Positions 478-22,623 of a stretch of DNA of 23,208 bases are shown here, piece after piece. Each line of letters opens with the position of its first letter. Within the stretch, counting starts at the first letter, position 1. The stretch covers positions 1-23,208 of IMG/VR virus record IMGVR_UViG_3300027852_000171. One strand, 5' to 3'. Made by a program: the position numbers and the translations under genes. The notes under the pieces are model-generated. The model saw nothing but the letters and a program-made list of their open reading frames with translations. It ran no database searches and was not told where the DNA came from. Origin of the DNA: a virus.

Positions 478-877
478 AAAGAAAGGTAAAGGAAGACCGA
501 CAAAATACAGACCAGAGTATTGCCAGGATATTATCAATTTCTTTTCCAAACAACTCAACACGAAGAAACCAAGCCTTCCCTTTTTTTCAGCGTATGCAAG
601 AGAAATATCAATAGATGTAGACACTTTGCAAGAATGGAAAAAAGTCCACAAAGATTTTTCCTTATCCTATAGTAAATGTAAAAAAATCCAAGAAGAAATA
701 CTTACACAGGGCGGACTTAACCGAACATTTGATGCCGGCTTTGCATGGAGGACGGGCAAAAATATATGTGGTTGGCGTGATGTGAAGGAAATCAAGCAGG
801 ACATTAAGACAGAACATGATATTTCGCCTGCCTTGGCGGACATGTTTAATACAATGTATAAAGGAGAACCAAAATGA
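467..877 (+). CDS. terminase small subunit-like protein
   Basis: A 136-aa protein from ATG 467. The N-terminus is strongly basic (MAAKKKGKGRPTKY) followed by a helix-turn-helix-like stretch of about residues 14-60 with FxxYAREISIDVDTLQEW, the usual form of DNA-binding small terminases that start GRPTKYxPEY. The C-terminal part (GFAWRTGKNICGWRDVKE) also resembles this group. It would recognise phage DNA and load the large subunit for packaging. An upstream in-frame TTG at 458 is possible, but GAGGA at 460-464 better serves ATG 467 although the gap is short. It overlaps the membrane-protein gene by 11 nt, and its TGA overlaps the next ATG (ATGA), so translation is probably coupled. Confidence 0.75.
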   Translation: MAAKKKGKGRPTKYRPEYCQDIINFFSKQLNTKKPSLPFFSAYAREISIDVDTLQEWKKVHKDFSLSYSKCKKIQEEILTQGGLNRTFDAGFAWRTGKNICGWRDVKEIKQDIKTEHDISPALADMFNTMYKGEPK

Positions 878-1383
878 AGAAACTGTTAGTATCTATTGCA
901 ATCATTGCAGCATTAATCTTTACGGGATCAGCATTAGCAGAGGTTGTACAGCACTCAGGCAGTCTTGGCGTTAAGGGCAAGCTGGGCGATAGCAGGCATA
1001 TATGGAGTGAGGGGTGGATAAACGACATATATATTGACAGTGTGGCGTATGCTGATGTTATTACTGTAGATATGACTGACATTAGTACGGCCGGTAGTGT
1101 GTGGGTTGTGGCTCCTTATGCCGGGACAATAACTACAATCTACTCAGTTATTAATGGAACGATTGCTACAGCCCCGGCTGTTATTACGGTTGAGCTTGGG
1201 GGTACAGCAGTAACAGGCGCATCTATTTCGATTACCCATACTTCGTCTGCAGCAGGTGATGTTGATAGTTGCACACCAACAGCCCTAAACACGGTTACAG
1301 CGGGACAGGCTATTGAGATTATAACCAGCGGAGCATCAACCAACACTATTAGGGCTACATTTACCATCATTATAACGAGGTAA
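874..1383 (+). CDS. Sec-exported beta-rich protein between terminase genes
   Basis: A 169-aa protein with a textbook signal peptide: KK at residues 2-3, a hydrophobic core at 4-18 and a signal peptidase I site ALA|E at 22/23. There is no lipobox. The mature part is Thr/Ile/Val/Gly-rich and beta-like. The last 100 residues, with VAPYAGTITTIYSV and SAAGDVDS then NTVTAGQAIEI, resemble small beta-sandwich phage proteins often found near capsid genes. SD AGGAG at 862-866 is well placed. A signal peptide is odd for a virion protein. A periplasmic or surface role, such as blocking superinfection, is possible, but so is mis-predicted export of a structural protein. Function unknown. Confidence 0.8.
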   Translation: MKKLLVSIAIIAALIFTGSALAEVVQHSGSLGVKGKLGDSRHIWSEGWINDIYIDSVAYADVITVDMTDISTAGSVWVVAPYAGTITTIYSVINGTIATAPAVITVELGGTAVTGASISITHTSSAAGDVDSCTPTALNTVTAGQAIEIITSGASTNTIRATFTIIITR

Positions 1384-1454: not shown

Positions 1455-3047
1455 ATGGTAAATAAATTTATGCAAAACCTAACAAACAGAACACAAGCTC
1501 ATGAGTTTTACGGACAGATACTATCAAAGGCAAAGAAAGAAGGCGTAGCTTCCCAAAAGAAAATAGCTGCTATGATTGGTGCTAACGATCTGTTCTATCT
1601 TCTGGTGTATGTGCTTGACCGTAATGATGTGGATTGCGATTGGTTGTTTGATCGGTGTCGTGAGGTTCAGCTTGCGCCTAATGGGTTTATTGATCTGTGG
1701 GCCAGGGAGCATTATAAGTCAACGATCATTACTTATGCATTAACTATTCAAGACATTATTAATGACGTTAATTTACGCATAGCTATATTTAGTGTTACCA
1801 GGGGCGAAGCTATTAAGTTTGGAAGTGAAATAAAGAAAACATGCGAAAACAACCCTAAGCTGTACGAATTATGGCCTGATGTGTTTTGGCAGGAGCCTCT
1901 TAAGGAAACACGAAAAATTAGTGCAGCATGGTCTGACGAGAAAGGTTTGACGTTCAAACGGACAGCTATATTTAAAGAAAACACACTTGAATGTTGGGGT
2001 CTTGACGCAATGCCTACAGGTCGGCACTATCCTATCAGGGTTTATGACGATATTATCACAGAGCGTCACGTTACTAACCCAGACCAGATTAAGAAATCAA
2101 TGGAAGGCTGGCGGTTGAGTGCAAACCTTGGAAGTGCTGCGTTAATAAAACACTATAAAGAGACAAATATAAGAAGGATAATAGGTACACGCTATCATCA
2201 AAATGATCCATACGGGCAGATATTAAGGGAAAAGATTGCAGTACCGAGGATTTACCCGGCTACCGACAACGGAAAGGATAGTGGAAAGCCTGTTTTCTTT
2301 ACTTCTGAGTTTCTGCATACCAGGCGTAAAGACAATGGCCCTTATCAATTTGCATGTCAGTATCTCCAAGATCCCCAAGCAGATGAAGCGCAAGGGTTTA
2401 ACCCTTCATGGAATATCCACTACAACAATCAGGAATGGAATCATTTGAATAGATACTTGTTGTGCGACCCCGCTGGTGAAAAGAAAAGAGGGCAAGGACA
2501 CGATCCTGATTATACTGTTATGCTGGTTATAGGGTTAGGTGAAGACCAAAACTATTATCTTATTGATGGCGTGCGTGATAGAATGAACTTAACACAGCGC
2601 ACTGAAACATTGTTTAAGTTGCAAAGGAAATACAATCCGTTAAAGACAGGTTATGAGAGGTATGGCAAGGATAGCGATATTGAGCATATTGAATATGTTA
2701 TGACAAAAGAACATTATAGGTTTCAAATTACACCCCTTGGTGGGAGTATGCCGAAGCTTGATAGAATAAGAAAATTAATACCACCGTGGGAGTCAGGCAG
2801 GGTATTCTTACCTTCTGTGTGTCCATTTATAAGCTATGATGGGAAACAATGTGATTTAGTACAAGAATTAAGAGATGATGAACTGTTGACATTTCCCGTT
2901 GGTTCACATGATGACATGCTTGACTGTTTTGCAAGGATACTCGATCCTGAGCTTGGCGCTGAGTTTCCCAGGACTGAAACAGAACAGCATCATTCACAAT
3001 TTACACAGAGGGCGAAGACTGAATATGATGTATTTGAAAATGTTTAA
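1455..3047 (+). CDS. terL: terminase large subunit (ATPase and nuclease)
   Basis: A 530-aa DNA-packaging motor. N-terminal ATPase: variant Walker A AREHYKST (83-90), Walker B RVYDD (195-199) with adjacent acidic residues, and coupling motif IIGTRYHQ (242-249). C-terminal RNase H-like nuclease: CDPAG with D338, a second acidic site near D350-D352, E401 in YERYG, and GSHDDMLD (483-490). All expected motifs are present, so the protein looks intact. It cuts concatemers and pumps DNA into the prohead through the portal. The start is the first ATG. It lacks a clear SD and abuts the inverted repeat at 1395-1453; ATG 1470 is an alternative start, also without SD. The 3' end overlaps the next gene by 23 nt. 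Confidence 0.95.
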   Translation: MVNKFMQNLTNRTQAHEFYGQILSKAKKEGVASQKKIAAMIGANDLFYLLVYVLDRNDVDCDWLFDRCREVQLAPNGFIDLWAREHYKSTIITYALTIQDIINDVNLRIAIFSVTRGEAIKFGSEIKKTCENNPKLYELWPDVFWQEPLKETRKISAAWSDEKGLTFKRTAIFKENTLECWGLDAMPTGRHYPIRVYDDIITERHVTNPDQIKKSMEGWRLSANLGSAALIKHYKETNIRRIIGTRYHQNDPYGQILREKIAVPRIYPATDNGKDSGKPVFFTSEFLHTRRKDNGPYQFACQYLQDPQADEAQGFNPSWNIHYNNQEWNHLNRYLLCDPAGEKKRGQGHDPDYTVMLVIGLGEDQNYYLIDGVRDRMNLTQRTETLFKLQRKYNPLKTGYERYGKDSDIEHIEYVMTKEHYRFQITPLGGSMPKLDRIRKLIPPWESGRVFLPSVCPFISYDGKQCDLVQELRDDELLTFPVGSHDDMLDCFARILDPELGAEFPRTETEQHHSQFTQRAKTEYDVFENV

Positions 3048-10088: not shown

Positions 10089-10955
10089 ATGGCAATTACA
10101 ACTGTCGAAGGCATATGCAACCTTGCAATGCATCGCTTAGGCGCTGAAAAAGTAACAGACGTAACCGGGAGTCCATCATCTGCTGAAGAAATAGCTTGTA
10201 GCGATATATACGAACAGACCAGAGACGAAATGTTGCAGGGCATGTTTTCAGTTACGGAAATTGGGGATTATAATTGGCAATTTGCTAAAAGACATCTTCA
10301 GCTAAACAAAGCTGCCGGGTATGACGAATCAGACTATGACGAAATAGTCATCACTGGTATCTCCCAGGCTGATCCGGCTGTGATCACGGCTGCGAGTCAT
10401 GGTTTCTCAGACGGTTGGCAGGTTTATATTGATGATGTTTCTGGCATGACAGAGATAAACGGGTTGTATGTGAGGGTTGCGAATGGGGCGGCTAATACGT
10501 TTGAGTGCTATGGTATTGATACTACTAAGTTTACTGCCTATACTTCTGGCGGTACGGTTATACGAAAAGAGCCTTTGTCTGATTACCAACAGGGTTATGC
10601 ATATGAAGTGCCTGCCGACTTTCTTAAAATCGTTACAATGGAAGAAAAATCGCAATATGAGTTAATCGGTTCTGGTAATTCTGCAAGAATCTTGAGTACC
10701 TATGAAAATCCTATCCTTATCTATATTGCACAAGTAACAACAGTTACAGAATTTACAATTGGGTTTATCAGGGCTTTAGCTGGACGCATAGCCTATGAAC
10801 TTGCACCTTCCATATCCCCGAAGAATGTTGAAACAGTTTATAAACAATACACTGTGGATGTCCACGATGCTATTGAGTCAGACTCAAAGAGTGTAACTCC
10901 TGGTAGCCTGATAAAGGAAGATAATCGATATGTTGATGAGGGGGGCTGGGGTTGA
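10089..10955 (+). CDS. tail tubular protein A-like (T7 gp11) with FCCH-like insert
   Basis: A 288-aa tail adaptor that sits under the portal. The N-terminus GICNLAMHRLGAEKVTDV, then RDEMLQ and YNWQFAKRHLQL (61-72), and the later QGYAYEVPADFLKIV (168-182) are the usual gp11-type signatures. Between them about residues 86-159 form an extra beta domain, ITGISQADPAVITAASHGFS to TAYTSGGTVI. This resembles the FCCH-like domain, a small repeat found in many phage tail proteins. Thus the core is interrupted by a likely surface-exposed module. The SD AAGGA precedes ATG 10089. Its TGA stop overlaps the TTG start of the next gene. Confidence 0.85.
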   Translation: MAITTVEGICNLAMHRLGAEKVTDVTGSPSSAEEIACSDIYEQTRDEMLQGMFSVTEIGDYNWQFAKRHLQLNKAAGYDESDYDEIVITGISQADPAVITAASHGFSDGWQVYIDDVSGMTEINGLYVRVANGAANTFECYGIDTTKFTAYTSGGTVIRKEPLSDYQQGYAYEVPADFLKIVTMEEKSQYELIGSGNSARILSTYENPILIYIAQVTTVTEFTIGFIRALAGRIAYELAPSISPKNVETVYKQYTVDVHDAIESDSKSVTPGSLIKEDNRYVDEGGWG

Positions 10956-13900
10956 GTAGATATAACTTTATAAAAACCTCTTTTAATGCTGGTGAATTTT
11001 CACCTAGTATATACGGCCGTACAGACTTGGAAAAGTATAATAACGGCTGTATAACCATGAAGAACTTCATCCCGATTCCGCAAGGGGGCGCAACCCGCCG
11101 TCCCGGGTTTGAGTTTATCGCCGAAGCAAAAAATGATAATGAAAAAGTCCGCCTTATTCCCTTCCAGTTTTCCGATGAGCAATCCTATATAGTTGAGTGC
11201 GGTGCTGGCTATAATCGATACTATAAAGACGGTGGTCAAATCATCACGCCTGACAGCTATTCCAAGCTACTTTTACACATGAACGGCGCTGATGCTTCAA
11301 CAGCTTTCGCAAACGAAGGCGCAGGCTTTATGAGAGCCACAACGATAGCCTTTGTAGACGGTGGCGCGGGAGCAGACACTATTACCGATTCAGGGAGTGG
11401 TTTTGTAACGGCTAACATGGCGGTTGGTTCAATTACGGTAGCTGGTTCGACAAGTAATGATGGTACTTACGCTGTTACTGTCGTTGCTGCCGGAACCTTA
11501 ACTTTAGCAACAGGAGTTCTCACGGCTGAAGCCGCAGGGGATAATGTCTCTATTACCATGCATCCTGTTACAGCTAACGGTAATACTCAGGTTGATACCG
11601 CCGAAAAGAAGTTCGGTACAGGGGCAGGATTATTTGACGGTACAGGCGATTATTTAAGTCTTCCTGATAGTGCTGATTGGAATTTTGGGTCTGATAGATT
11701 TACTATTGATTTAAACATTCGGTTTTCCACCATTTCTGGGATTAGCACTTTGTGGTATCAATCTGACACCACGGGTAGTGACTTAATCTGGTTGTATGTT
11801 GATCATTTGGGTAACACTATAAACCTTAGAGTGGTTGATGCTGGGGTTACAATAATAAATATGTCAGAATCATGGAGCCCATCTGTAAACACCTGGTATC
11901 ACATAGCATTGATTAGAGGGTGGGGCAACCAGGATAACGATTGGGGTTTTTCTGTTGACGGCACTATTCTCGGCACAGCGACCACAGACACAACATCAAT
12001 GGCAGACCATGACGGTAGTATCAACGTGGGTGGCATTGCTGGGGGGAAACTATTCGATTTTAGCGAGGAAAACCATGTGGCTTCCGCTAATGGAAATGCT
12101 GAAATATCTGTAGCGCAATCTAAGTGGGGCGATGCCGCAATGTATTTTGACGGCAGTGGAGATTATTACAGTTTTCCAGATTCTGACGATTGGGATGTTT
12201 TTTCTTCTGGCCTATCAAATGTTACAATAGATTTATGGGTAAAGCATGACGATCATGTCGGGGCAGAAGGTTATGTCGGCCAAGCTTATACATCTGATGA
12301 TTTTTGGAATCTTGAGCATATTCATGGCATAGGATTGCGCTGGATTTTAGGTGTCAATGCAAATTTTGTTATTATATCCGGGGGTGAAATTACTGATACC
12401 GATTGGCATCACGTTGTGGCTGTTCGAGTAGGCGATGAATACGGGTTGTATTTAGACGGCGTGCAGGTAGCTTATACGCAAGACGCTACAACGCACGAAG
12501 GCTGGCCGTATCCTTTTACGGTGGGAACCACACGCCTTGGGTCAGCAGCACTGACAGGATATATAGACGAATTACACCTTACTTATACAAACTTATTTAG
12601 TGCAAGCCCTAATGTCGGGCTGACAGACACCATTACTGTCCCTACCGAGGCGCATGTTCCTATTGGCGGCACGAAATTATTATTACATTGTGACGAACAT
12701 AACCTTGATGGCCACATAGACGAATTTAGAGTATCAAAAGGCGTTGCTCGATGGACTGCCGCTTTTACCCCTCCAACAAGAGCCTACCCGTTAGACACTA
12801 ACGATGGAGCTGTTTATGAATCTTCAAGTACTGGGATATTAGAATCAGAGCTTGATTATCTAAAATGGGCGCAGTCTTACGATACATTATATATTGTTCA
12901 TAAAGATCAGGCCCCCATGAAACTGACAAGGGCGGATCACGATGATTGGCTGCTTACGGATGTGTCTTTCACAGCCACACCCGCGGATTGGGGAAGCGGT
13001 AACGGCTACCCTAGAGCGATTATATTTCACCAGGACAGATTAGTTTTAGCCGGTTCTCCTGGCTATCCTCCCCGGTTTTGGTTTTCCAAAACAAGTGATT
13101 ACGAGAACATGACCACAGGTACTGGTGATGATGATGGTTTTACGATTACGCTGTTATCCGGCAGTGTGGATATGATATATTGGCTGGAAAGCCAAAGGCG
13201 GTTAGTAGCTGGTTCAAATAGCGGTGAATGGTGGTTGTCAGGTGACGGGAATGACTTAATTATCATTCCAACATCAAAACAAGCTCAGAACGATACAAAG
13301 CATGGATCAATAGAAGTTCAACCCGTTAATATTGGGAATACGCTCTTATTAGCTCAACAACCGGGTACGAAACTCAGAGAAATGTCCTATGATTATGACA
13401 CAGACAGCTATGCAAGTAACGATATAACGATTTTAGCAGATCATATCTTAAAGGGCTATTCTTTAAAACAAATGGCCTACCAACAAACTCCTTATCAGAT
13501 AGTATGGGTTTTAAGGTCTGATGGCACGCTTTTTGCGCTTACCTACATGAAAGAACACCAGGTTGTGGGTTGGTCTGAAATCGAAACAGACGGTACGGTT
13601 ATAAGCATTGCGACTATCCCTGGGGATCCTGAAGATGAACTTTGGATAGCAGTCGAAAGAAAAATAGCTGGTTCGCCGGAAGATCTGTTGCCCACCAAAA
13701 TTTGCATTGAGCGATTAAAAAATTTTGCGTTTGCTTCGCTGCAAGATGCTTTTATGGTGGATTCAGGGTTGACATATGATGGTGCTGCGGTTACTTCAAT
13801 AAGTGGACTTGACCATTTAGAAGGTGAAACGGTTGATGTTTTAGCTGATGGAGTTGTGGGGTCTTATACGGTTTCAAGCGGTGCTATTACACTTTCAACG

Positions 13901-14233
13901 GCTGCGTCTTTGGTTCATATCGGTATACCTTATAATTCCGATTTACAAACAATGTATGTTGATATTCCCCTGGAAACTGGTAGCTCAATGTTTATGAAAA
14001 AGCGTATTCCGACTGTTAATTTCAGAGTCAGGAATAGTGCAGGCGGAAAATACGGTAAAGACTCAAGCACCCTTGTTGACCTTATGGATGAAACGTCTTT
14101 ATATAGTGGTGATTTAACTAATAAAAGCGTTAATATGGGCTGGACACGAAACGCAAGCATTTATATAAGGCAAGACGATCCCTTACCTTTAACCATAGAT
14201 TCAATGGTGATGGAGGTGGAAGTTGGCAGGTGA
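10952..14233 (+). CDS. tail tubular protein B-like nozzle (T7 gp12) with LamG insertion
   Basis: A 1093-aa nozzle protein. Core signatures: SFNAGEFSPSIYGRTDLEKY (10-29), PQGGATRRPGFEFIAE (43-58) and LKWAQSYDTLYIVH (637-650), followed by FHQDRLVLAG. About residues 98-616 are an insertion carrying LamG (concanavalin-like) modules and, near 129-203, a small beta domain. Two modules share FDGTGDYLSLPDSADW (228-243) and FDGSGDYYSFPDSDDW (399-414). The insertion explains the excess length over T7 gp12 and probably displays a sugar-binding surface on the tail. The TTG start at 10952 is chosen because the conserved N-terminal motif begins 10 residues later and no suitable ATG precedes it. The purine run at 10938-10946 may serve as SD. 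Confidence 0.88.
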   Translation: MSRYNFIKTSFNAGEFSPSIYGRTDLEKYNNGCITMKNFIPIPQGGATRRPGFEFIAEAKNDNEKVRLIPFQFSDEQSYIVECGAGYNRYYKDGGQIITPDSYSKLLLHMNGADASTAFANEGAGFMRATTIAFVDGGAGADTITDSGSGFVTANMAVGSITVAGSTSNDGTYAVTVVAAGTLTLATGVLTAEAAGDNVSITMHPVTANGNTQVDTAEKKFGTGAGLFDGTGDYLSLPDSADWNFGSDRFTIDLNIRFSTISGISTLWYQSDTTGSDLIWLYVDHLGNTINLRVVDAGVTIINMSESWSPSVNTWYHIALIRGWGNQDNDWGFSVDGTILGTATTDTTSMADHDGSINVGGIAGGKLFDFSEENHVASANGNAEISVAQSKWGDAAMYFDGSGDYYSFPDSDDWDVFSSGLSNVTIDLWVKHDDHVGAEGYVGQAYTSDDFWNLEHIHGIGLRWILGVNANFVIISGGEITDTDWHHVVAVRVGDEYGLYLDGVQVAYTQDATTHEGWPYPFTVGTTRLGSAALTGYIDELHLTYTNLFSASPNVGLTDTITVPTEAHVPIGGTKLLLHCDEHNLDGHIDEFRVSKGVARWTAAFTPPTRAYPLDTNDGAVYESSSTGILESELDYLKWAQSYDTLYIVHKDQAPMKLTRADHDDWLLTDVSFTATPADWGSGNGYPRAIIFHQDRLVLAGSPGYPPRFWFSKTSDYENMTTGTGDDDGFTITLLSGSVDMIYWLESQRRLVAGSNSGEWWLSGDGNDLIIIPTSKQAQNDTKHGSIEVQPVNIGNTLLLAQQPGTKLREMSYDYDTDSYASNDITILADHILKGYSLKQMAYQQTPYQIVWVLRSDGTLFALTYMKEHQVVGWSEIETDGTVISIATIPGDPEDELWIAVERKIAGSPEDLLPTKICIERLKNFAFASLQDAFMVDSGLTYDGAAVTSISGLDHLEGETVDVLADGVVGSYTVSSGAITLSTAASLVHIGIPYNSDLQTMYVDIPLETGSSMFMKKRIPTVNFRVRNSAGGKYGKDSSTLVDLMDETSLYSGDLTNKSVNMGWTRNASIYIRQDDPLPLTIDSMVMEVEVGR

Positions 14234-14738
14234 CTTTAATTACGGCAATGCGATGCAGATTGGCGGGGGTTTTCTTTCTGCCGGGGCTGATTGGTATTCA
14301 GCTATTACAGCTCTTAAGACATCAAAATACGCTGCGGATATTCTCAAATACCAGGCAAGCTATATTGATGCTGTAACAGAGTTAGAAGTTGCCAAAAAGA
14401 AAAGAGAACTAAAAAAAGTTATCGGTTCCCAAAGAGTAAGGACTGCTGCGGCAAATATTATGCCTGACGTTGGAACGCCCATGGAATTACAGGTTGAAAG
14501 TGAGATTTTAAACGAAATTGATATTGCCTTAATAAGAATATCAGGAAGTATGCAAAAGGTGGGTATGCAGGCGCAGGCGTATGAGAAAGAAATAGCTGGA
14601 TATGGGCAGGCAGCACAGCATTTTGGGAGAGCCGCCGGGACATTAACAAATTCTATGATAACGCAGCTGAAACGCAATCCGGAAACAACTACAAGACCCC
14701 AGAATATACAAGGTGGCGATTGGAGGAAAAACCCATAA
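14223..14738 (+). CDS. internal virion protein B-like (T7 gp14 position)
   Basis: A 171-aa helical protein. A Gly/Ala-rich hydrophobic start (MQIGGGFLSAGADWYSAITA) is followed by Ala/Lys-rich helices and a GSQRVRTAAANI...GTPMELQVESE segment (about 68-94), a common pattern in podoviral gp14-like ejection proteins. It would be stored in the head and ejected to help build the channel across the envelope. GGAGG at 14212-14216 is six bases from a TTG at 14223; an ATG at 14253 has no such site, so TTG is preferred. It overlaps the nozzle gene by 11 nt and ends overlapping the next ATG. Confidence 0.7.
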   Translation: MAGDFNYGNAMQIGGGFLSAGADWYSAITALKTSKYAADILKYQASYIDAVTELEVAKKKRELKKVIGSQRVRTAAANIMPDVGTPMELQVESEILNEIDIALIRISGSMQKVGMQAQAYEKEIAGYGQAAQHFGRAAGTLTNSMITQLKRNPETTTRPQNIQGGDWRKNP

Positions 14739-16534
14739 TGCCAAGATTGCCAACATACGAATTAAAAGAAACACCACAAACAAATCTGGTTACGCCTGAT
14801 TTCAGTCATAAGGGCGGTTTGGGAGCTTTAGGCCGAGAAGTTGGGAAAGTCCTTCAAGTTCGAGGCGAACAGCTAACCAGAGAATACGACACTGTTAAGG
14901 CTGTAAGCGCGTTCAATGCGTTTTCTGATTCTTCAAGAGGAATGGTGCAGGGCTTATTAAAGCTCGAATCGGGGGCTGCTGAAGGCGCTCAAGGTGCATA
15001 TAAAGAGTGGTACGGTAAGAATCAGAACGAGTTTACCGGGATGTTGAACAGCCAGCCACAACATGCCATGTTTAAGCGGATGGCCGATCAACGGCGTGAA
15101 GTTGATTTAAACCATCTGGCAAGGCACGAAGCGACACAATATAAAGTACAAAAAAAAGAAGCTCTTGACGGTAATGCTACTAATGCTGATTTAGTGATAA
15201 GGGAAGCAGTAACCGAAGCATTGAAAACGCCCGGTAAGGATTTTACTACTGCCGACATAGTTATTGAAGACTTTAAAAACAGCTTAAAGGCAATGTTTCC
15301 GGGTCACGACTTAAAGGCGCTAAACGCAAAATATACTCAACTATTGCGTGTAGCCCAGCTTGAAGAAATGATGGAAGTTGACCCTCAAACAGCGAGAGAA
15401 TACATTGAAAGAACAGAAATTAAAGATCAGTTAAGTTTTGTCGAAAACGGAATATTAAAAGATGCTTATCCGGCATTAAAGGATAAGTTGAAAGTAGAAA
15501 TAGAAAGAGATAATATTGATAGGGGGTATCATGCTCAGATTGCCAAGTTTCCTACTGACCCTGGCGCAGCTATTAGGGATTTAGACCCCAAAAGAATGAA
15601 AGAACTTGATATTTCAGTTAGAGAAGCACAGTCAATTAAAAATATCTTTAAAGGTGAAATTCAGTGGGCGAGAAATGAAGAGGAAAACCAGCGCCGGGAA
15701 AATGCAGAGGTTATAAGAAACGAAATAAACGAATTAATGTCCAATGGCTTTATGAAACAAGCTCTTGATAAACTCGACCAATCGGCTGCAACTATTTCAG
15801 CGAGCGATTACGCAAACATATTTAGTGTTATCCATACAAGGTCATCTTTATACACAGATACCGACCTGGCAGACAGAATGAGCCAACAGATTCAAGATGG
15901 TATCATAACAGATGAATCACAGGTGTATTTGTATCAAGGCAAGGGTTTAAGCAGGGCTGATACTGCTATTAAAGTCAAAGAATTAAAAGAGTTCCAGAAG
16001 AACCCCTCAACACTCCAATATCTTAACATGGCTTTTGGTAGAGAGGGTTGGTATGAAACTGAATTTGCAGATTCACCTATGATGTTAGGGAATAAGACCT
16101 ATTTAAGAAATGATATTCAAAGACAAATAGACGATAAATCAATTAAGCTGAGAGGTGCAGATATATTAGAAGAAGTTAAAAGACAAGCGGGTGTAATGGA
16201 GAACGTTTACAGAGAAAGGTATGAGCTTTTGGGAGTTCCACTCTGGAAAACTGGGCCGGAAAAAACCAAAGCACCTTTTGGGGAAGAAATTGAAAGACAA
16301 AGATCAAGAGATAAAGCACGAGGTGAGGGGAAACAACCCGCAGGGAAGAACTCCCAACCCGTCAAATCTGAGTTTGCGCCGGATTCGTTTGCAGAAATAC
16401 CGGAAAGCGCAAAAGCTGAAATAGAAAGTATGCTTAAGAAAAGAGGGTACGCTATAACTGACGACAATATGCTGAAAGTTTACCAAAAAAATAAAGATAA
16501 ATTACCTAAAGACAATGCAAGCGGGAGTTGGTAA
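14738..16534 (+). CDS. internal virion protein C-like (T7 gp15 position)
   Basis: A 598-aa hydrophilic, largely helical protein between the gp14-like and gp16-like genes, the T7 gp15 slot. The N-terminus MPRLPTYELKETPQTNL and later long charged helices (for example about residues 300-345) fit podoviral gp15-type ejection proteins. No enzyme motif or transmembrane segment is seen. The C-terminal 100 residues are Lys/Pro/Ser-rich and low in order. It probably forms part of the periplasmic ejection tunnel. ATG 14738 overlaps the previous stop; GGAGG at 14722-14726 is 11 nt away. An in-frame TTG at 14720 has no SD and is rejected. The stop overlaps the next ATG. Confidence 0.72.
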   Translation: MPRLPTYELKETPQTNLVTPDFSHKGGLGALGREVGKVLQVRGEQLTREYDTVKAVSAFNAFSDSSRGMVQGLLKLESGAAEGAQGAYKEWYGKNQNEFTGMLNSQPQHAMFKRMADQRREVDLNHLARHEATQYKVQKKEALDGNATNADLVIREAVTEALKTPGKDFTTADIVIEDFKNSLKAMFPGHDLKALNAKYTQLLRVAQLEEMMEVDPQTAREYIERTEIKDQLSFVENGILKDAYPALKDKLKVEIERDNIDRGYHAQIAKFPTDPGAAIRDLDPKRMKELDISVREAQSIKNIFKGEIQWARNEEENQRRENAEVIRNEINELMSNGFMKQALDKLDQSAATISASDYANIFSVIHTRSSLYTDTDLADRMSQQIQDGIITDESQVYLYQGKGLSRADTAIKVKELKEFQKNPSTLQYLNMAFGREGWYETEFADSPMMLGNKTYLRNDIQRQIDDKSIKLRGADILEEVKRQAGVMENVYRERYELLGVPLWKTGPEKTKAPFGEEIERQRSRDKARGEGKQPAGKNSQPVKSEFAPDSFAEIPESAKAEIESMLKKRGYAITDDNMLKVYQKNKDKLPKDNASGSW

Positions 16535-19500
16535 TGCCTGAACTTGACACCACAGGTTTAAATCTTGAAAAGACAGACTCTTTTGATCTTGAGGGTCTTG
16601 ACCTTGAAAAAGCTGCGCCTGAAGTTACAGCCGGACGTATATTCGGGCGCTTTGGTTATACTGTTTATCAAACCCCTGGGCTTTTCTCTAAAATGAGTCG
16701 GTCTTTTCTTGAAGCCGAGGACATTGACGCTTTAGATGAAAAACCAAGCGTTCCGGTTAAGGGGTTAGTGTTTCCTTTTGCGGATGAAATGCAACAGCTT
16801 GTAGGTAAAATAACAGGCAGGACAGCCATGGACGATGCTTATGACCAGATGGATGTACCCGCACAAACAAGGGTAAACGAAAAAGCTAACGAATATGCAG
16901 AGATTTACCCTGATCGTGAGGCATTTAAAAAGGCTGTTATTGAGGAAAAGAAAGCTGAAAGAAAAGACGTTATTGAACAGATGAAAAGTTTTGAGCAACA
17001 GTTTGAAATGCCTGAGAAATACAAAGAATCTTCCGGTTTTCTTGAAGATATTGCCGGGGGGTTAGGTACGAGCGTTACGTCAGCGATCGCAGGGATAGCG
17101 GGCATGGTGTTCGGTGGGCCTGCAACAAGCTATTTATTTTTAACAGCTGCAGCCTACTCTCAGATGCACGGATATAAGATACAGGAACTTGAAGACATTG
17201 GTGGTGTATCGATTAATGATAAGCTGAACGCAGCTATCCTCTCAGGAGCCATACAAGCACCTTTGGAGGCCGTAAGCAACCTGTTTATGCTTTCTAAGAT
17301 TATGAAACTCAACGGGACATGGACTAAGTTTCTTTTTACGACACTTCCACAGGCTGGGGTTGGCGAATTTTCTACAGAATACTTGCAGCAATGGCCTGAC
17401 ACTTATGCAAGCGTAATGGCTCTAAACCCTGACAGAAACACAGCACAAAACCTTATATTTATGCGGAACAATATAGGCGAAATTAACGGCGAGGCTTTAT
17501 ATGCTGGAACCGTTGGCGGCGCAGCCGGGATGCTTACCGTTGGTCTTGGTAGTGGCGGCAAAATAGCAACTGCGGCTATGCTTAATAAACTCATTTCACC
17601 AGAGCAGAAGGCCATAAACGAGGAAAAAGCTGCAAGGTTTGAGCAGTTGGCTACTAAGTTTGAGAAAAACGGAATAACGGAGTCTGAAGCTGTTGAGTTA
17701 AGGGAAATGGTGAATGCTCCCGAAACCACAGAAATTGAGGAAATTGTTAATGAGGTTAAAAAACAGTTAGTATTTCAAGAGCCGATTAAGAGCGAAACAA
17801 GAGACAGTGTTATAAAATCTGTCAGAGAGTCTAAAAAATTTACAGATGAACAAGTTGATTCATACGCTACTCTTTGGGACGGAATAGCTCGTAATTGGGC
17901 TGAGTTAGAACCTGATAGAAAGCCGGAACAGTGGTATGATACATGGCTAAGTGAGTTTAATGCGGGTGATTTTATTGAAACGGCTAACAAGGTTTATCAG
18001 ATTGCTGCGTGGCATGGCGGCCCTCACTCTTTCGATAAGTTCACAACAGAAAAGATAGGAACCGGAGAGGGCGCACAGGCTTTTGGGTGGGGATTGTATT
18101 TTACTGATGAGGAAAGTATTGCGAAGGGATATGTGGATGCAGGCGTTACAGGCGATTGGCTTACAATGACGATGCCTGATGGCTCAGAAGTCGCATGGGA
18201 TGACTTAACAGAAGAAATGTTGCAAGCCGCCAAGTATATTGAATTCGGCGAAAAAGCTGCTGGAGAATTTAAGCAAAATACACATTACTACGCTGAAATT
18301 AAAGCCAAAGAAGCAGGGGTGTCTAAAAAGGTTGTTGCTCTTATTAAACAAAAACCAAAGTTTAAATACAAAAAACCGCCTAAAAACCTCTACAAAGTAA
18401 CCCTCCACAAAGGCAAGAAGCCAGGGGAATATGAGTGGATAGAGTGGGATAAAAAAATTGCTCCAGGTGCAGGTAAGAAAATAATTGCACAACTGTTAAA
18501 AGAAAAAATAAGATTAGATGGTATTAATGAAAAGATGGTTTCATCACCTGATGAATTTTGGATGAAATCCCGCGTAACTGGCAAAGAAATTTATAGGAAT
18601 TTATCCGAGCGAACAATAGGCTCTGACAAAGAAGCCTCCCTATTCCTCCTAAGAGCAGGCATAGACGGCATTAAATACCCTACCGGAAGCCTGTCATGGG
18701 TAAAGGATTCTAAAAAAACTAATTATGTTGTGTTTGATGAAGAAGCGGTAACGATAGACAAAAAGCTAACCTTCCAAGTCTCGATGGACTATATAGCCGA
18801 AGCTGTCGAAGAAGGCGACCCACAAGCTAAAAAGAAAAAAGCAGCTATCAAAAAGATGGGTGATAGGCTGACTGAGCTTAAAATAGAGCGAAACGAAAAG
18901 ACCGTTGATATGTTTACGGAATTTTTAAGAGGTGTTGAGGCTATTCTATCAGACCCGAAATCTACGCCGGAACAAAAAGAACAAGCTCTTAGCGGTATGG
19001 AAGAAATGGAGAAGGTTGTTAACCGCACTTTGATGTATCAGGATGGCAAAAAACCTCTTGGCGCAATGGAAAACCTGTTTAACGATTCTCCTAAAATCAT
19101 GCACGCCTTTGAAGGTGCAGACCCCTCCACTCCCATACACGAAACAGGACACGTTTTGCTTGAAATGATGTTCCAGGGGGGGCATGAGGATTATCTTGTA
19201 GCTGCTGAGTGGGCAGGGGTAAGTTATGAAAAAGCTATGGGCGGGACAAAGCAATGGACACCTGAGGAACTTGAAAAGTTTGCCAAAGGTTTTGAAGTAT
19301 ACCTGATGGAAGGTAAAGCCCCTACTACTCGTTTGGCAGAGGTATTTAAGAACTTAAAAACATGGTTGTTAGAAGTGTATAAAAGTGTCAAGGCTTTAGG
19401 CGTTGAGCTTAATCCTGAGATAAGGGATGTTTTTGACAGGTGGGTATCCACAGAATTTGAAAGAGAAAACGACCCTATAAGAGATGTTCCCGAATGGCTA

Positions 19501-22500
19501 GTGGCAGATGACATAAAAGCCGACATGAAACGCCGTGAGTTGACCGAAGCTGCATCTTTTGAGGATATACAGGTAGAGGCAAGGAAAAGGGTTCTGGGTG
19601 CGTTAAAGGCCAAACGAGCGAAGCTGGAAAAGAAACTTGAGAAAGAGTTTCGGAAAGAGGCTCGCGAGATGGTTAATGAAAATCCTATTTATGACATGCT
19701 TGCTGATGCTAAAAAACGAGGCGGTCTTAATTATAAAGACCTTCTAAACGATTTCGGGGAGGAGTATCTTGGGGATATCGTTAAAAGGCTTCCAGGAGTT
19801 GTGAATAAAAACGGTGAGCATGTTGATACTTTCGCAATGGAATATGGGTATGATACCGCTGATGAAATGATGCAGGCTATTTTAAACACACCGACTAAAC
19901 AACATGCTGAAAATAGCCATTATGATGACCTGTGGCGTGGCTATGAATCCATGCTTGAGCACGAAAATATCACGGCTTATGAGGATGTAATAGACGAAGA
20001 AATAAATATCCTTAATGAAATGCTTGGCGGGAAACCAAAAGCAAGAAAAGATTTAAAGGGCATTATCAGAAAACAGACCGGGCAAATTAAAGATCAGGAA
20101 TATCAGGAACTAAAAGACGGTATCAAACAAGATATGGTGGTAGCAAGAAAGGCTTTCAGCGCAGGCAAAAAAGAAGCTGTAAAACAACAGTTAGAGAAAA
20201 CCAAGAAACGATTACAGGCATTAAAGAGCCAAGTTAAGGACAGAGACGCAAGGCGCAAGATAGATAAAAGGATGCGAACTATCTGGAAGTCAAAGCTATT
20301 GCCTGAATACAAAGCGCAAATAACACAAATATTAAGCGTATATTATAACATACCAAAGAGTTATCTGATACAGCCGGAGATGTCGCTTGATGCCTTCCTT
20401 GCAGAAAAAGAAGAAGATAATGAAACTAATGTCAATGCTATCCGAAATGCTCTTTTAAATATACCCGAACAAAAGCGCAATAAAGTCGGGTACAGAATAC
20501 CGCTTACGTTAGAAGAAAAACAAGCTATGATGCAGCCGGTTCTTTCTTTAAACCATATGGGCAGGACTGAGAAGATTCTAATTTCAGAGAAAGAAAAGGC
20601 TGACTTAGACGAAAGGGTGCTTGAACTCACAACCCGTGGTTATGAGGTTTTCGGGCGGCCGGAAGAATCAGAGGATGTTATTCTTTTAAGAGAAAAGGTG
20701 TCTTGGTTTGAAAAGATGAGCGAAACTGCAAGGGGGTATTTGGCATCGACAGGTAAACTTGAGTTTATATTCGATATTCTTGATGGCGGTGGTTTGGGTG
20801 GGCCAAACGCTGCCTTGTTTGAGAAATACACGAATGCCTTAGATAGGGAAATGGTTATAGGCAAAGAATATTTAAATAAAATTAAAAAGGTTTTCAAGCC
20901 TGCAAAAAAAGTTAAGAATTGGGCTAATAAAATACATAAAATAGAGGGTGTCCCACAATCATATACTAAAGAACAAATGTTTATGTTTGCCTTGCAGTCT
21001 GCTTCTAAAAGTGGGCGCAATGCTCTTATGACCGGCGACGGGTTTTCTGAGCAACAGATAGATGCAATCGTTCAAAAGCTAAAAGATCAGGGCGAATGGC
21101 ATATGGTTGAGGGCGTGTGGGATGTGTTTGAATCTTTATACCCGATGCTAAACGATGTTCATAGAAAATTGACAGGCATTAGTCTCCCCAAGGTCGAGGG
21201 GAAATACTTTCCATTAAAATATGATCCGGTTCTTTCAAGAACAGCCGGGATGCACGAACAAAGAGCAGCCGAAAGAGACTTATTTCACGCCGCATACACA
21301 AGACCGCATGTCGAAGCCGGATCGCGAATAGCGAGAGTTGCGGGTAACAAGCCCCCTATTTTGCTTTCGTTGAATGTAATTAATATAAAACTAACAGAAC
21401 TGATTCATGATATTACGCATCAGCTCCCGGTAAGGGACTTGCAAAAAATACTGACTAATGAGAAATATAGAGGCATGGTTGATAATACTCTTGGGAAAGC
21501 ATATTATGACCAGATGATGCCATGGTTAGCTCATGTTGCAAAACCTAGAAAACTAAAAACAGAGGGGGAAAGGTGGGCTGACAAGTTAAGAGGAAACACA
21601 ACCATAGTTGCTTTGGGCTTAAAAGTGTCTGTTTCACTAAAACAAGCCGGTTCCATAACCCAAACTGTTGATGAATTAAACTTACTCACCGGAAGCAAGA
21701 CAAAAGGCGTAACTCTAACCGCAAGGGCGATGTCAGATTTTTACCGAGACAGAAAGCACATGGTAGACTTTATAAACGAGTCTTCCCCGCAAATGGCAAA
21801 TAGAAGGAAAAGCTGGAATAGAGAACTTGTTGAATTATATAATGAGTCAGACATTAAGGATTTTGGGAGAAGCGAAGCTGCCAGGGATGCTTATTTTTGG
21901 ATGATTCAAGCAGTTGATTCAATGGTAACAATGCCAAGTTGGTATGCTGGGTATTTACACGGAATGGATGTTTACCATGGTGATCACACAAAAGCTGTTA
22001 AGGTTGCTGACAAACTTGTACGAAAAACACAACCGTCTGCTAATCCTGGTGATTTATCCTTGATACACAGGGGTGGTAAAGACAGGTCTTCTTATGTAAA
22101 GTTGACGACTATGTTCTACACTCACTTTTCGAACTTTCAAAACAGGATGTGGCAAACTAAGCAGCTTCATAAATTGGGACAAATTGACAGAGTTGAAGCA
22201 TATGCGAGTTATTGGTGGTTAATGGTAGCGCCTGGATTATTAGGTGGGTTTCTCGGGAGACGCGAGATCCCTAAAGGCTGGGATTGGCTAACAGATGTAA
22301 TCGGTTATAGTTTAGCGGGCTTGCCCGTGGTTAGAGATATTATGGGGCCATTCCTAACCGGCTATGATTATACAATTTCACCTGTGGTAAGAGGGCTTGA
22401 GTCGCCTATTAAGGTTTATCAATACGCAAAGGGTGGAAAAATAAGCAAGGCTGCGAAAGAGTCTGTAAGATTGTCCGGTTATATATTTGGCTTACCATCA

Positions 22501-22623
22501 GACCAGGCTCTAATTACAATGGATGGTGTGGTTGACTTAATGTCCGGAGAAACAAATAAACCTCAAAGGATGTTTTTTAGAAAGCCATACAAAGAAAAGA
22601 AAAAAGTGAAAAGGAGCTTATGA
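16534..22623 (+). CDS. giant polyvalent ejection protein with ART and zincin domains
   Basis: A 2029-aa protein in the T7 gp16 slot. In order: a charged N-terminus with coiled coil (about 95-165); hydrophobic segments near 176-208 and 320-346 that may insert in membrane; an ADP-ribosyltransferase-like domain (about 488-745) with H494-G495, GWGLYF (518-523) and a closing NYVVFDEEAVTI; a zincin protease-like domain with HETGH (869-873), then EKFAKGFEVYLMEGKAPTTR (914-933) supplying a likely third ligand; a basic coiled-coil region (about 1195-1260); and a C-terminal region from about 1388 resembling LPD38-type large polyvalent domains. No lytic transglycosylase motif is seen. It likely enters the host with the DNA and acts on host targets; those targets are unknown. 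ATG 16534 has SD GGGAG at 16523-16527. Confidence 0.85.
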   Translation: MPELDTTGLNLEKTDSFDLEGLDLEKAAPEVTAGRIFGRFGYTVYQTPGLFSKMSRSFLEAEDIDALDEKPSVPVKGLVFPFADEMQQLVGKITGRTAMDDAYDQMDVPAQTRVNEKANEYAEIYPDREAFKKAVIEEKKAERKDVIEQMKSFEQQFEMPEKYKESSGFLEDIAGGLGTSVTSAIAGIAGMVFGGPATSYLFLTAAAYSQMHGYKIQELEDIGGVSINDKLNAAILSGAIQAPLEAVSNLFMLSKIMKLNGTWTKFLFTTLPQAGVGEFSTEYLQQWPDTYASVMALNPDRNTAQNLIFMRNNIGEINGEALYAGTVGGAAGMLTVGLGSGGKIATAAMLNKLISPEQKAINEEKAARFEQLATKFEKNGITESEAVELREMVNAPETTEIEEIVNEVKKQLVFQEPIKSETRDSVIKSVRESKKFTDEQVDSYATLWDGIARNWAELEPDRKPEQWYDTWLSEFNAGDFIETANKVYQIAAWHGGPHSFDKFTTEKIGTGEGAQAFGWGLYFTDEESIAKGYVDAGVTGDWLTMTMPDGSEVAWDDLTEEMLQAAKYIEFGEKAAGEFKQNTHYYAEIKAKEAGVSKKVVALIKQKPKFKYKKPPKNLYKVTLHKGKKPGEYEWIEWDKKIAPGAGKKIIAQLLKEKIRLDGINEKMVSSPDEFWMKSRVTGKEIYRNLSERTIGSDKEASLFLLRAGIDGIKYPTGSLSWVKDSKKTNYVVFDEEAVTIDKKLTFQVSMDYIAEAVEEGDPQAKKKKAAIKKMGDRLTELKIERNEKTVDMFTEFLRGVEAILSDPKSTPEQKEQALSGMEEMEKVVNRTLMYQDGKKPLGAMENLFNDSPKIMHAFEGADPSTPIHETGHVLLEMMFQGGHEDYLVAAEWAGVSYEKAMGGTKQWTPEELEKFAKGFEVYLMEGKAPTTRLAEVFKNLKTWLLEVYKSVKALGVELNPEIRDVFDRWVSTEFERENDPIRDVPEWLVADDIKADMKRRELTEAASFEDIQVEARKRVLGALKAKRAKLEKKLEKEFRKEAREMVNENPIYDMLADAKKRGGLNYKDLLNDFGEEYLGDIVKRLPGVVNKNGEHVDTFAMEYGYDTADEMMQAILNTPTKQHAENSHYDDLWRGYESMLEHENITAYEDVIDEEINILNEMLGGKPKARKDLKGIIRKQTGQIKDQEYQELKDGIKQDMVVARKAFSAGKKEAVKQQLEKTKKRLQALKSQVKDRDARRKIDKRMRTIWKSKLLPEYKAQITQILSVYYNIPKSYLIQPEMSLDAFLAEKEEDNETNVNAIRNALLNIPEQKRNKVGYRIPLTLEEKQAMMQPVLSLNHMGRTEKILISEKEKADLDERVLELTTRGYEVFGRPEESEDVILLREKVSWFEKMSETARGYLASTGKLEFIFDILDGGGLGGPNAALFEKYTNALDREMVIGKEYLNKIKKVFKPAKKVKNWANKIHKIEGVPQSYTKEQMFMFALQSASKSGRNALMTGDGFSEQQIDAIVQKLKDQGEWHMVEGVWDVFESLYPMLNDVHRKLTGISLPKVEGKYFPLKYDPVLSRTAGMHEQRAAERDLFHAAYTRPHVEAGSRIARVAGNKPPILLSLNVINIKLTELIHDITHQLPVRDLQKILTNEKYRGMVDNTLGKAYYDQMMPWLAHVAKPRKLKTEGERWADKLRGNTTIVALGLKVSVSLKQAGSITQTVDELNLLTGSKTKGVTLTARAMSDFYRDRKHMVDFINESSPQMANRRKSWNRELVELYNESDIKDFGRSEAARDAYFWMIQAVDSMVTMPSWYAGYLHGMDVYHGDHTKAVKVADKLVRKTQPSANPGDLSLIHRGGKDRSSYVKLTTMFYTHFSNFQNRMWQTKQLHKLGQIDRVEAYASYWWLMVAPGLLGGFLGRREIPKGWDWLTDVIGYSLAGLPVVRDIMGPFLTGYDYTISPVVRGLESPIKVYQYAKGGKISKAAKESVRLSGYIFGLPSDQALITMDGVVDLMSGETNKPQRMFFRKPYKEKKKVKRSL

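What the first reader, a model, noticed from the sequence alone, without database searches (positions are those of the whole stretch)
16534..22623. Polyvalent toxin-like protein occupies the gp16 ejection slot
Seen: one uninterrupted 2029-codon frame follows the gp14- and gp15-like genes and carries hydrophobic segments, an ART-like domain, an HETGH zincin domain and a large C-terminal region. Known: polyvalent proteins of phages and conjugative elements combine such domains and are thought to enter the host with DNA to counter defences. Inference: here the ejection channel protein and the effector are one chain, so enzymes would be delivered at the first moment of infection.
Basis: partly seen in the sequence, partly recalled or inferred. 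Interest (0 to 1): 0.75.

Follow-up and report, generated by a model that had tools for sequence, protein, structure and literature searches.

The report
Phage injection protein carrying swappable enzyme
A short-tailed virus of microbes makes one giant protein whose constant back half looks like DNA-injection machinery and whose front half carries an exchangeable enzyme, here one predicted to tag host proteins; it belongs to a widespread, already described class of 'polyvalent' proteins, but shows how the cargo slot between a fixed front and a fixed protease is built.

Summary
16534-22623 is one open frame of 2029 aa, start overlapping the stop of the gp15-slot gene (TAATG), behind an internal-virion-protein gene. 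It contains a PARP/diphtheria-like ART domain (res. 490-745, H494-Y522-D735), an HETGH zincin (837-985) and about 1,040 aa of helices.

It is not a one-off. It is a divergent member of the giant last ejection protein of BPP-1/AF/Carin1-type podoviruses (PHROG 9880), i.e. the phage polyvalent proteins of Iyer et al. 2017. Among 175 relatives the zincin and C-terminal region are constant in size, while the front half varies from about 300 to 2,100 aa. In the four closest relatives the slot before the zincin holds ART, ART, RadC or an unrelated domain. Cargo borders carry an [LVM][YF]Q motif, far above background and in low-confidence linkers of the model; I propose, unproven, that these are self-cleavage sites. 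Part of the C-terminal region (1405-1672) resembles the gp16 hub of the T7, PhiM1 and E1004 cores (Z 6-7), weak support that the 'gp16 slot' is homologous and not only positional. Virion presence and delivery are inferred, not shown.

The parts
16534..22623 (+). Polyvalent ejection-slot protein, 2029 aa
   Evidence: phrog_9880 E 8e-147; relatives
14223..14738 (+). gp14-slot internal virion protein (phrog_418)
14720..16534 (+). gp15-slot protein (phrog_10475); no SLT domain detected, unlike BPP-1, AF and Carin1
16534..17988 (+). N-terminal region (res 1-485), shared with vir555, L098 and L018; no LPD22 detected; residues ~165-345 Gly-rich and mildly hydrophobic
17770..17778 (+). VFQ motif (res 413-415) in the N-terminal region
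17992..18000 (+). Junction motif VYQ (res 487-489) in front of the ART
18001..18768 (+). ART domain (res 490-745), triad H494, Y522, D735
   Evidence: Pfam; fold; conservation
18769..18777 (+). Junction motif TFQ (res 746-748) behind the ART
18778..19032 (+). Helical insert (res 749-833), absent in vir555
19033..19041 (+). Junction motif MYQ (res 834-836) in front of the zincin
19042..19488 (+). Zincin-like metallopeptidase domain (res 837-985), HETGH 869-873, conserved E914 and E921
19489..22620 (+). Constant alpha-helical C-terminal carrier region (res 986-2029)
20746..21549 (+). Part of the C-terminal region (res 1405-1672) resembling the hub of T7/PhiM1/E1004 gp16-type core proteins; contains invariant G1556-x-Y-x-P1560

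Best explanation
The protein is the last and largest internal ejection protein of a BPP-1/AF-like podovirus. Its constant C-terminal half (zincin plus about 1,040 aa of helices) is the carrier: it most likely sits in the internal core above the portal as T7 gp16 does and leaves the capsid ahead of the DNA. The region in front of the zincin is a cargo slot. Here the slot holds a diphtheria/PARP-type ADP-ribosyltransferase of the H-Y-D polyvalent clade, which would modify a host protein on arrival, in the manner of T4 Alt. The zincin most likely frees the cargo by cutting the chain at the [LVM][YF]Q junctions that flank it. Shown here: domain order, conserved catalytic residues, cargo exchange between close relatives, enrichment of the junction motif at module borders, synteny. 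Inferred: virion location, delivery, ART activity and target, zincin activity and cutting sites (the cutting step alone about 0.25-0.3 likely).
For: Synteny with BPP-1, AF, vir555, Carin1 and others: internal virion protein, gp15-slot protein, then the giant protein. Core present in 173 of 175 proteins, with HExxH found in 168 by script plus 2 more with an insert and 2 cut by contig ends. C-part 5-95% range 1176-1368 aa against 292-2083 aa for the N-part. ART fold: 9k3a_B Z 11.6 over 161 residues, diphtheria toxin Z about 9, tankyrase Z about 9; H and Y 13/13, D 10/13. Cargo exchange: ART in window and vir555, RadC in L018 (E 1.5e-11), neither in L098. Slot contents in 73 other front regions: ART 11, LPD3 10, PBECR5 4, PBECR3 4, GGDEF 3, RadC 2, GNAT 2, MuF_C 2, ParB 1, zeta toxin 1. 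Junction motif: 9/14 ART starts and 56/165 zincin starts against 1.3% and 2.3% in controls, depleted in the C-part, in low-confidence linkers of the model. Gp16-type chains among the top rows for the C-terminal model. Carin-1 virions show an unresolved internal ejectosome (PMC11440229).
Against: No virion proteomics for this phage or, in the papers I could read, for this protein in a relative. The gp16 resemblance is modest (Z 6.0-7.0, where helical models often give such values by chance) and profile-profile comparison is not significant (P 0.04-0.08). Only a third of zincins have the strict junction motif upstream. The motif could be a structural strand or a recombination scar instead of a cleavage site. 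N4 vRNAP, with a comparable zincin, is packaged unprocessed (PMC5512222).
Confidence: 0.6

Rival explanations
1. Ejection protein whose zincin acts on other targets: it is a host-directed protease, or matures virion proteins during assembly, and the ART is delivered as part of an uncut chain.
For: N4 vRNAP and plasmid TraC1/ArdC are delivered uncut although they carry such zincins (PMC5512222). The zincin is the most constant part of the family while the cargo changes, so it need not be matched to the cargo.
Against: The zincin always sits at the cargo/carrier border, and a shared motif marks module borders.
Confidence: 0.3
2. The FQ motifs mark recombination borders or short structural strands that let cargo modules be exchanged, with no proteolysis.
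For: Cassette exchange is visible between close relatives; one member (L177) carries three near-identical LFQ-led modules in tandem, as duplication would give.
Against: Codons at the three window junctions differ (VYQ GTT TAT CAG, TFQ ACC TTC CAA, MYQ ATG TAT CAG), so amino acids, not DNA, seem to be kept. The junctions lie in poorly ordered linkers.
Confidence: 0.4
3. The giant protein is a lysis or cell-wall protein, as the labels 'lysin', 'lysis protein' and 'crystallin beta/gamma motif' in GenBank records suggest.
For: Record annotations; one paper repeats the lysin label for OANV1 gp16 (PMC9239159).
Against: No lytic domain found in it; SLT is in the neighbouring gp15-slot protein in BPP-1, AF and Carin1. 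Separate endolysin genes follow in several relatives.
Confidence: 0.04
4. The ART is a degenerate or structural domain without catalysis.
For: The window copy scores below the Pfam cut-off and has lost some residues conserved in the others (for example R at 722 and Q at 646).
Against: The H-Y-D triad and the whole GxGEGxQ/GWGLYF block are intact.
Confidence: 0.15

Closest known systems
Giant last internal protein of BPP-1/AF/Carin1-type podoviruses (Bbp10, AF gp16, Carin1 gp32; PHROG 9880)
   Same: Same genomic slot, zincin plus C-terminal core homologous along its whole length, variable cargo in front
   Different: Core only 25-27% identical to these three; LPD22 not detected at the N-terminus; cargo is ART instead of PBECR1, LPD23 or PBECR5
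vir555_00054 (BK063671, assigned to Methanomicrobiales)
   Same: 90% coverage at 31% identity, same gene order, same ART cargo flanked by FQ motifs
   Different: Lacks the 85-aa helical insert between ART and zincin
Polyvalent proteins of phages (Iyer et al. 2017, PMC5512222)
   Same: ART-PolyVal with H-Y-D site, zincin, late-gene context
   Different: The main text mentions neither BPP-1 nor Bordetella, nor an FQ junction motif; carrier core and cargo slot are separated here by comparison
T7 gp16 / PhiM1 TEP
   Same: Last gene of the core block; C-terminal part resembles the hub region; both families keep an invariant G-x-Y-x-P
   Different: T7 gp16 has an N-terminal transglycosylase and no known ART or zincin; sequence homology not significant
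N4 virion RNA polymerase
   Same: Same order: N-terminal entry region, enzyme cargo, HExxH domain, about 1,100-aa helical C-terminus
   Different: RNAP cargo; no detectable sequence relation of the C-terminal parts
Cyanophage A-4L gp27 (PDB 9k3a chain B)
   Same: Pre-ejectosome subunit with an ART-like domain; best fold match of the window ART
   Different: ART near the C-terminus, no HExxH, no detected sequence relation

Membership tests
Phage polyvalent proteins (Iyer et al. 2017) | Two or more disparate domains, including enzymatic ones, in one chain | tested here: met
   ART plus zincin plus large helical region
Phage polyvalent proteins (Iyer et al. 2017) | Encoded among late virion genes | tested here: met
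Phage polyvalent proteins (Iyer et al. 2017) | Packaged and injected | not testable with these tools
   needs virion mass spectrometry
ART-PolyVal (Pfam PF18760) | Score over the curated cut-off | tested here: not met
   22.6-23.8 bits against 31.2; ARTs in the same slot of relatives SR18 and ctEw122 pass it
ART-PolyVal (Pfam PF18760) | H-Y-D active site (strands 1, 2, 5) | tested here: met
   H494 13/13, Y522 13/13, D735 10/13 in aligned ARTs
ADP-ribosyltransferase fold | Structural match to solved ARTs | tested here: met
   Z 11.6 to 9k3a_B, about 9 to diphtheria toxin and tankyrase
Zincin metallopeptidase | HExxH helix plus downstream Glu helix | tested here: met
   HETGH in helix 389-404, E914/E921 in helix 433-449 of the model; both conserved 15/15
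Zincin metallopeptidase | Structural match to solved zincins | tested here: inconclusive
   ART filled the hit list; only a weak sequence hint to Spartan SprT, E 0.37
BPP-1-type giant ejection-slot protein (PHROG 9880) | Homologous zincin + C-terminal core | tested here: met
   phrog_9880 E 8e-147; alignment A1
BPP-1-type giant ejection-slot protein (PHROG 9880) | N-terminal LPD22 domain (found in 47 of 50 viral relatives; common, not universal) | tested here: not met
   no Pfam hit in window, vir555, L018 or L098
T7 gp16 | Position after gp14 and gp15 in the core block | tested here: met
T7 gp16 | N-terminal lytic transglycosylase | tested here: not met
   no SLT hit in the protein
T7 gp16 | Hub-domain homology | tested here: inconclusive
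   VIA Z 7.0, 6.5, 6.0; hhalign P 0.04 in a compatible register

The most novel reading that the evidence does not exclude
The family is a delivery polyprotein: a gp16-like ejection carrier with a built-in zincin that cuts at [LVM][YF]Q sites bounding an exchangeable cargo slot, so one injected chain breaks up into separate effectors at the start of infection.
Probability: 0.25. Interest if true: 0.8.

Novelty: new member of a known kind. Interest (0 to 1): 0.5.

Why it matters
Polyvalent proteins were proposed in 2017 as injected multi-effector chains, but how cargo is mounted and released is not known. Comparing this protein with relatives separates a constant carrier from an exchangeable slot and gives a concrete motif to test for processing. 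If right, it would explain how podoviruses swap early-infection enzymes without disturbing the ejection machine, and cultivated relatives such as Carin-1, AF or BPP-1 could be used to test it.

Tried and rejected
The search for related loci with the single protein found nothing; an alignment was needed. Sequence search of solved structures gave no meaningful hit for the C-terminal region or the whole protein and only a weak Spartan hint for the zincin. Foldseek of the C-terminal model against PDB gave nothing below E 1; gp16-type chains appeared only in the VIA second look. Homology of the C-terminal region with N4 vRNAP C1-C2 was tested as a tempting unification and not supported. T7 gp15 against the gp15-slot family: no match. 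LPD22 in the window clade: no profile hit; only a weak match (E 7e-4, probability 27%) of the hydrophobic region to the stretch after LPD22 in relatives. A first script count suggested 20 complete relatives without a zincin; reading them showed HExxH in 18 and the other two were short frames. Papers: no virion proteomics of this protein found in the open library; supplementary files could not be read.

Full report
Observation. Window 16534-22623 is one uninterrupted frame of 2029 codons. Its ATG overlaps the TAA of the preceding gene as TAATG. Gene order in the window is terminase, portal ('head-tail adaptor'), protease, major head protein, tail tube A- and B-like proteins, internal virion protein (14223-14738), gp15-slot protein (14720-16534), then this protein. 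The record is a 23 kb virus contig with no host named.

What it is related to. tblastn against phage records gives 44 hits; the best is vir555, a contig assigned to Methanomicrobiales (90% coverage, 31% identity), followed by Cobetia phage Carin1, Caulobacter phage SR18, Pseudomonas phage AF, Vibrio, Xanthomonas and Bordetella BPP-1 phages. In BPP-1, AF, vir555 and others the relative is also the last large gene of the core block. It belongs to phrog_9880 (E 8e-147). Searches with an alignment found 518 relatives in viral contigs and 154 in genome contigs, best 80 of each kept; the nearest are L018 (viral contig, 39%) and L098 (Desulfosarcina widdelii, 37%).

Constant carrier. In 15 proteins (window plus 14 phage records), residues from about 835 to the end align throughout, with invariant HE..H, E914, A917, E921, Y923, G927, P930 and others. 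Over 112 complete loci the part after the HExxH spans 1176-1368 aa (5-95%) while the part before it spans 292-2083 aa. HExxH is found in the zincin of 168 of 173 proteins; two of the other five have it before an insert (L043, L109), two are cut by the contig end (L040, L070), and L175 was not resolved.

Cargo slot. The four nearest relatives (window included) share the N-terminal region (alignment A4) and the zincin but differ in between: ART in the window and vir555; a RadC domain (Pfam E 1.5e-11) in L018; neither in L098. In more distant members Pfam finds LPD22 at the N-terminus and PBECR1, PBECR5, LPD23, ART-PolyVal, GNAT or ddrB-ParB before the zincin. Among 73 front regions scanned beyond residue 330: ART 11, LPD3 10, PBECR5 4, PBECR3 4, GGDEF 3, RadC 2, GNAT 2, MuF_C 2, ParB 1, zeta toxin 1. 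Most of these are domains of the polyvalent proteins of Iyer et al. 2017 (PMC5512222). LPD22 occurs in 47 of 50 viral relatives but was not detected in the window group.

The ART. Pfam scores it below its cut-off. Against 12 other ARTs of this type H494 and Y522 are invariant and D735 is kept in 10 of 13 rows, the H-Y-D site described for polyvalent ARTs (PMC5512222). An AlphaFold2 model of residues 478-1010 (mean pLDDT 77, pTM 0.47) matches, over 486-747, cyanophage A-4L gp27 in the solved pre-ejectosome 9k3a (Z 11.6, 161 residues, rmsd 4.0), then diphtheria toxin and tankyrase catalytic domains (Z about 9). So an ART-like domain inside a podovirus ejectosome protein already has a solved structure; I could not read the paper behind it.

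The junctions. The window ART is preceded by VYQ (487-489) and followed by TFQ (746-748); the zincin is preceded by MYQ (834-836). In vir555 the same ART is bounded by QFQ and RFQ, and in L098 and L018 FFQ and LYQ stand at one border of their different cargo. Over the family [LIVMF][YF]Q is 2.4 times more frequent than in shuffled sequence in the front part and depleted in the C-part. It lies within 10 residues before 9 of 14 ART starts (control 1.3%) and 5-20 residues before 56 of 165 zincins (control 2.3%). It also leads several unrelated modules. In the model all three window junctions lie in coil of low confidence. A stand-alone ART protein, phiGT1 gp5, has no such motif, while another polyvalent protein with an HExxH (phage LS06-2018-MD07) has nine. 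I read these as candidate processing sites; recombination borders or structural strands are not excluded.

The gp16 question. The C-terminal model (1010-2029, pLDDT 83.6, pTM 0.74) matches polyvalent proteins of other phages along its length in BFVD. Against PDB, gp16-type core proteins appear at ranks 1, 4 and 12 of the VIA list, starting at the same place in the model (residue 1405): PhiM1 8vb2_A Z 7.0 and T7 9jyy_I Z 6.5 over 1405-1672, E1004 9vvp_O Z 6.0 over 1406-1777. Such Z values can arise by chance for helical proteins. Profile comparison with a T7 gp16 family alignment gives P 0.039 in a compatible register, against 0.32 for the reversed profile, and both families have an invariant G-x-Y-x-P. 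This is suggestive, not proof. No similar support was found for N4 vRNAP, although its domain order is the same: entry region, enzyme, HExxH domain, large helical C-terminus (PMC12633501).

Mechanism. Best reading: an internal core protein ejected ahead of the DNA, carrying an ART that modifies a host protein on arrival, with the zincin releasing the cargo. Support for ejection comes from position, structural resemblance and the report that Carin-1 virions, whose gp32 is a relative, contain a visible but unresolved ejectosome (PMC11440229). ART activity, target, zincin activity and delivery are inferences. No counter-defence role can be claimed from sequence.

Differences from T7. No transglycosylase was detected in this protein. 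In BPP-1, AF and Carin1 an SLT domain sits in the gp15-slot protein; it is not detected in the window, vir555, L018 or MZH0603.

Verdict. The finding is real and correctly described. The protein is a new, divergent member of a known kind. The added value is the carrier/slot anatomy, direct evidence of cargo exchange among close relatives, and the junction motif as a testable processing hypothesis.

Noticed in passing
window 10952-14233: Tail tube B-like protein (1093 aa) carries a laminin G/ConA-like lectin domain (Pfam E 5.5e-19, res 400-543); the vir555 counterpart is only 683 aa, so a carbohydrate-binding domain seems inserted into the tail nozzle.
   Followed up: partly
window 10089-10955: Tail tube A-like protein (288 aa) has an extra stretch (E1_FCCH / Phage_tail_3 hits at about res 99-167) compared with the ~196 aa vir555 protein.
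   Followed up: no
window 1455-3047: The best terminase match is ANMV-1 virus (host an uncultured archaeon; 24% identity); with vir555 (Methanomicrobiales) and a Desulfosarcina relative this leaves an archaeal or sulfate-reducer host open.
   Followed up: no
window 14720-16534: The gp15-slot protein lacks the SLT transglycosylase found in BPP-1, AF and Carin1; it is also missing in vir555, L018 and MZH0603.
   Followed up: partly
window 874-1383: A 169-aa protein with a signal-peptide-like N-terminus lies between the terminase small and large subunit genes; no Pfam or PHROG match.
   Followed up: no
L177, residues 1017, 1214, 1423 of the giant protein: Three near-identical modules, each beginning DGSGQVLFQA(A/S)SMKPSLP, stand in tandem before the zincin.
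   Followed up: no
L098 4672-7075 (Desulfosarcina widdelii): The nearest full-length bacterial relative is preceded by regulatory- and replication-type genes, not by virion genes.
   Followed up: no
L178 20116-25269 (Anabaena phage A-4L gp27): Solved pre-ejectosome protein (PDB 9k3a_B) has an ART-like domain at 1418-1604 (LYHGT...GSGTYFS) that Pfam does not detect.
   Followed up: partly
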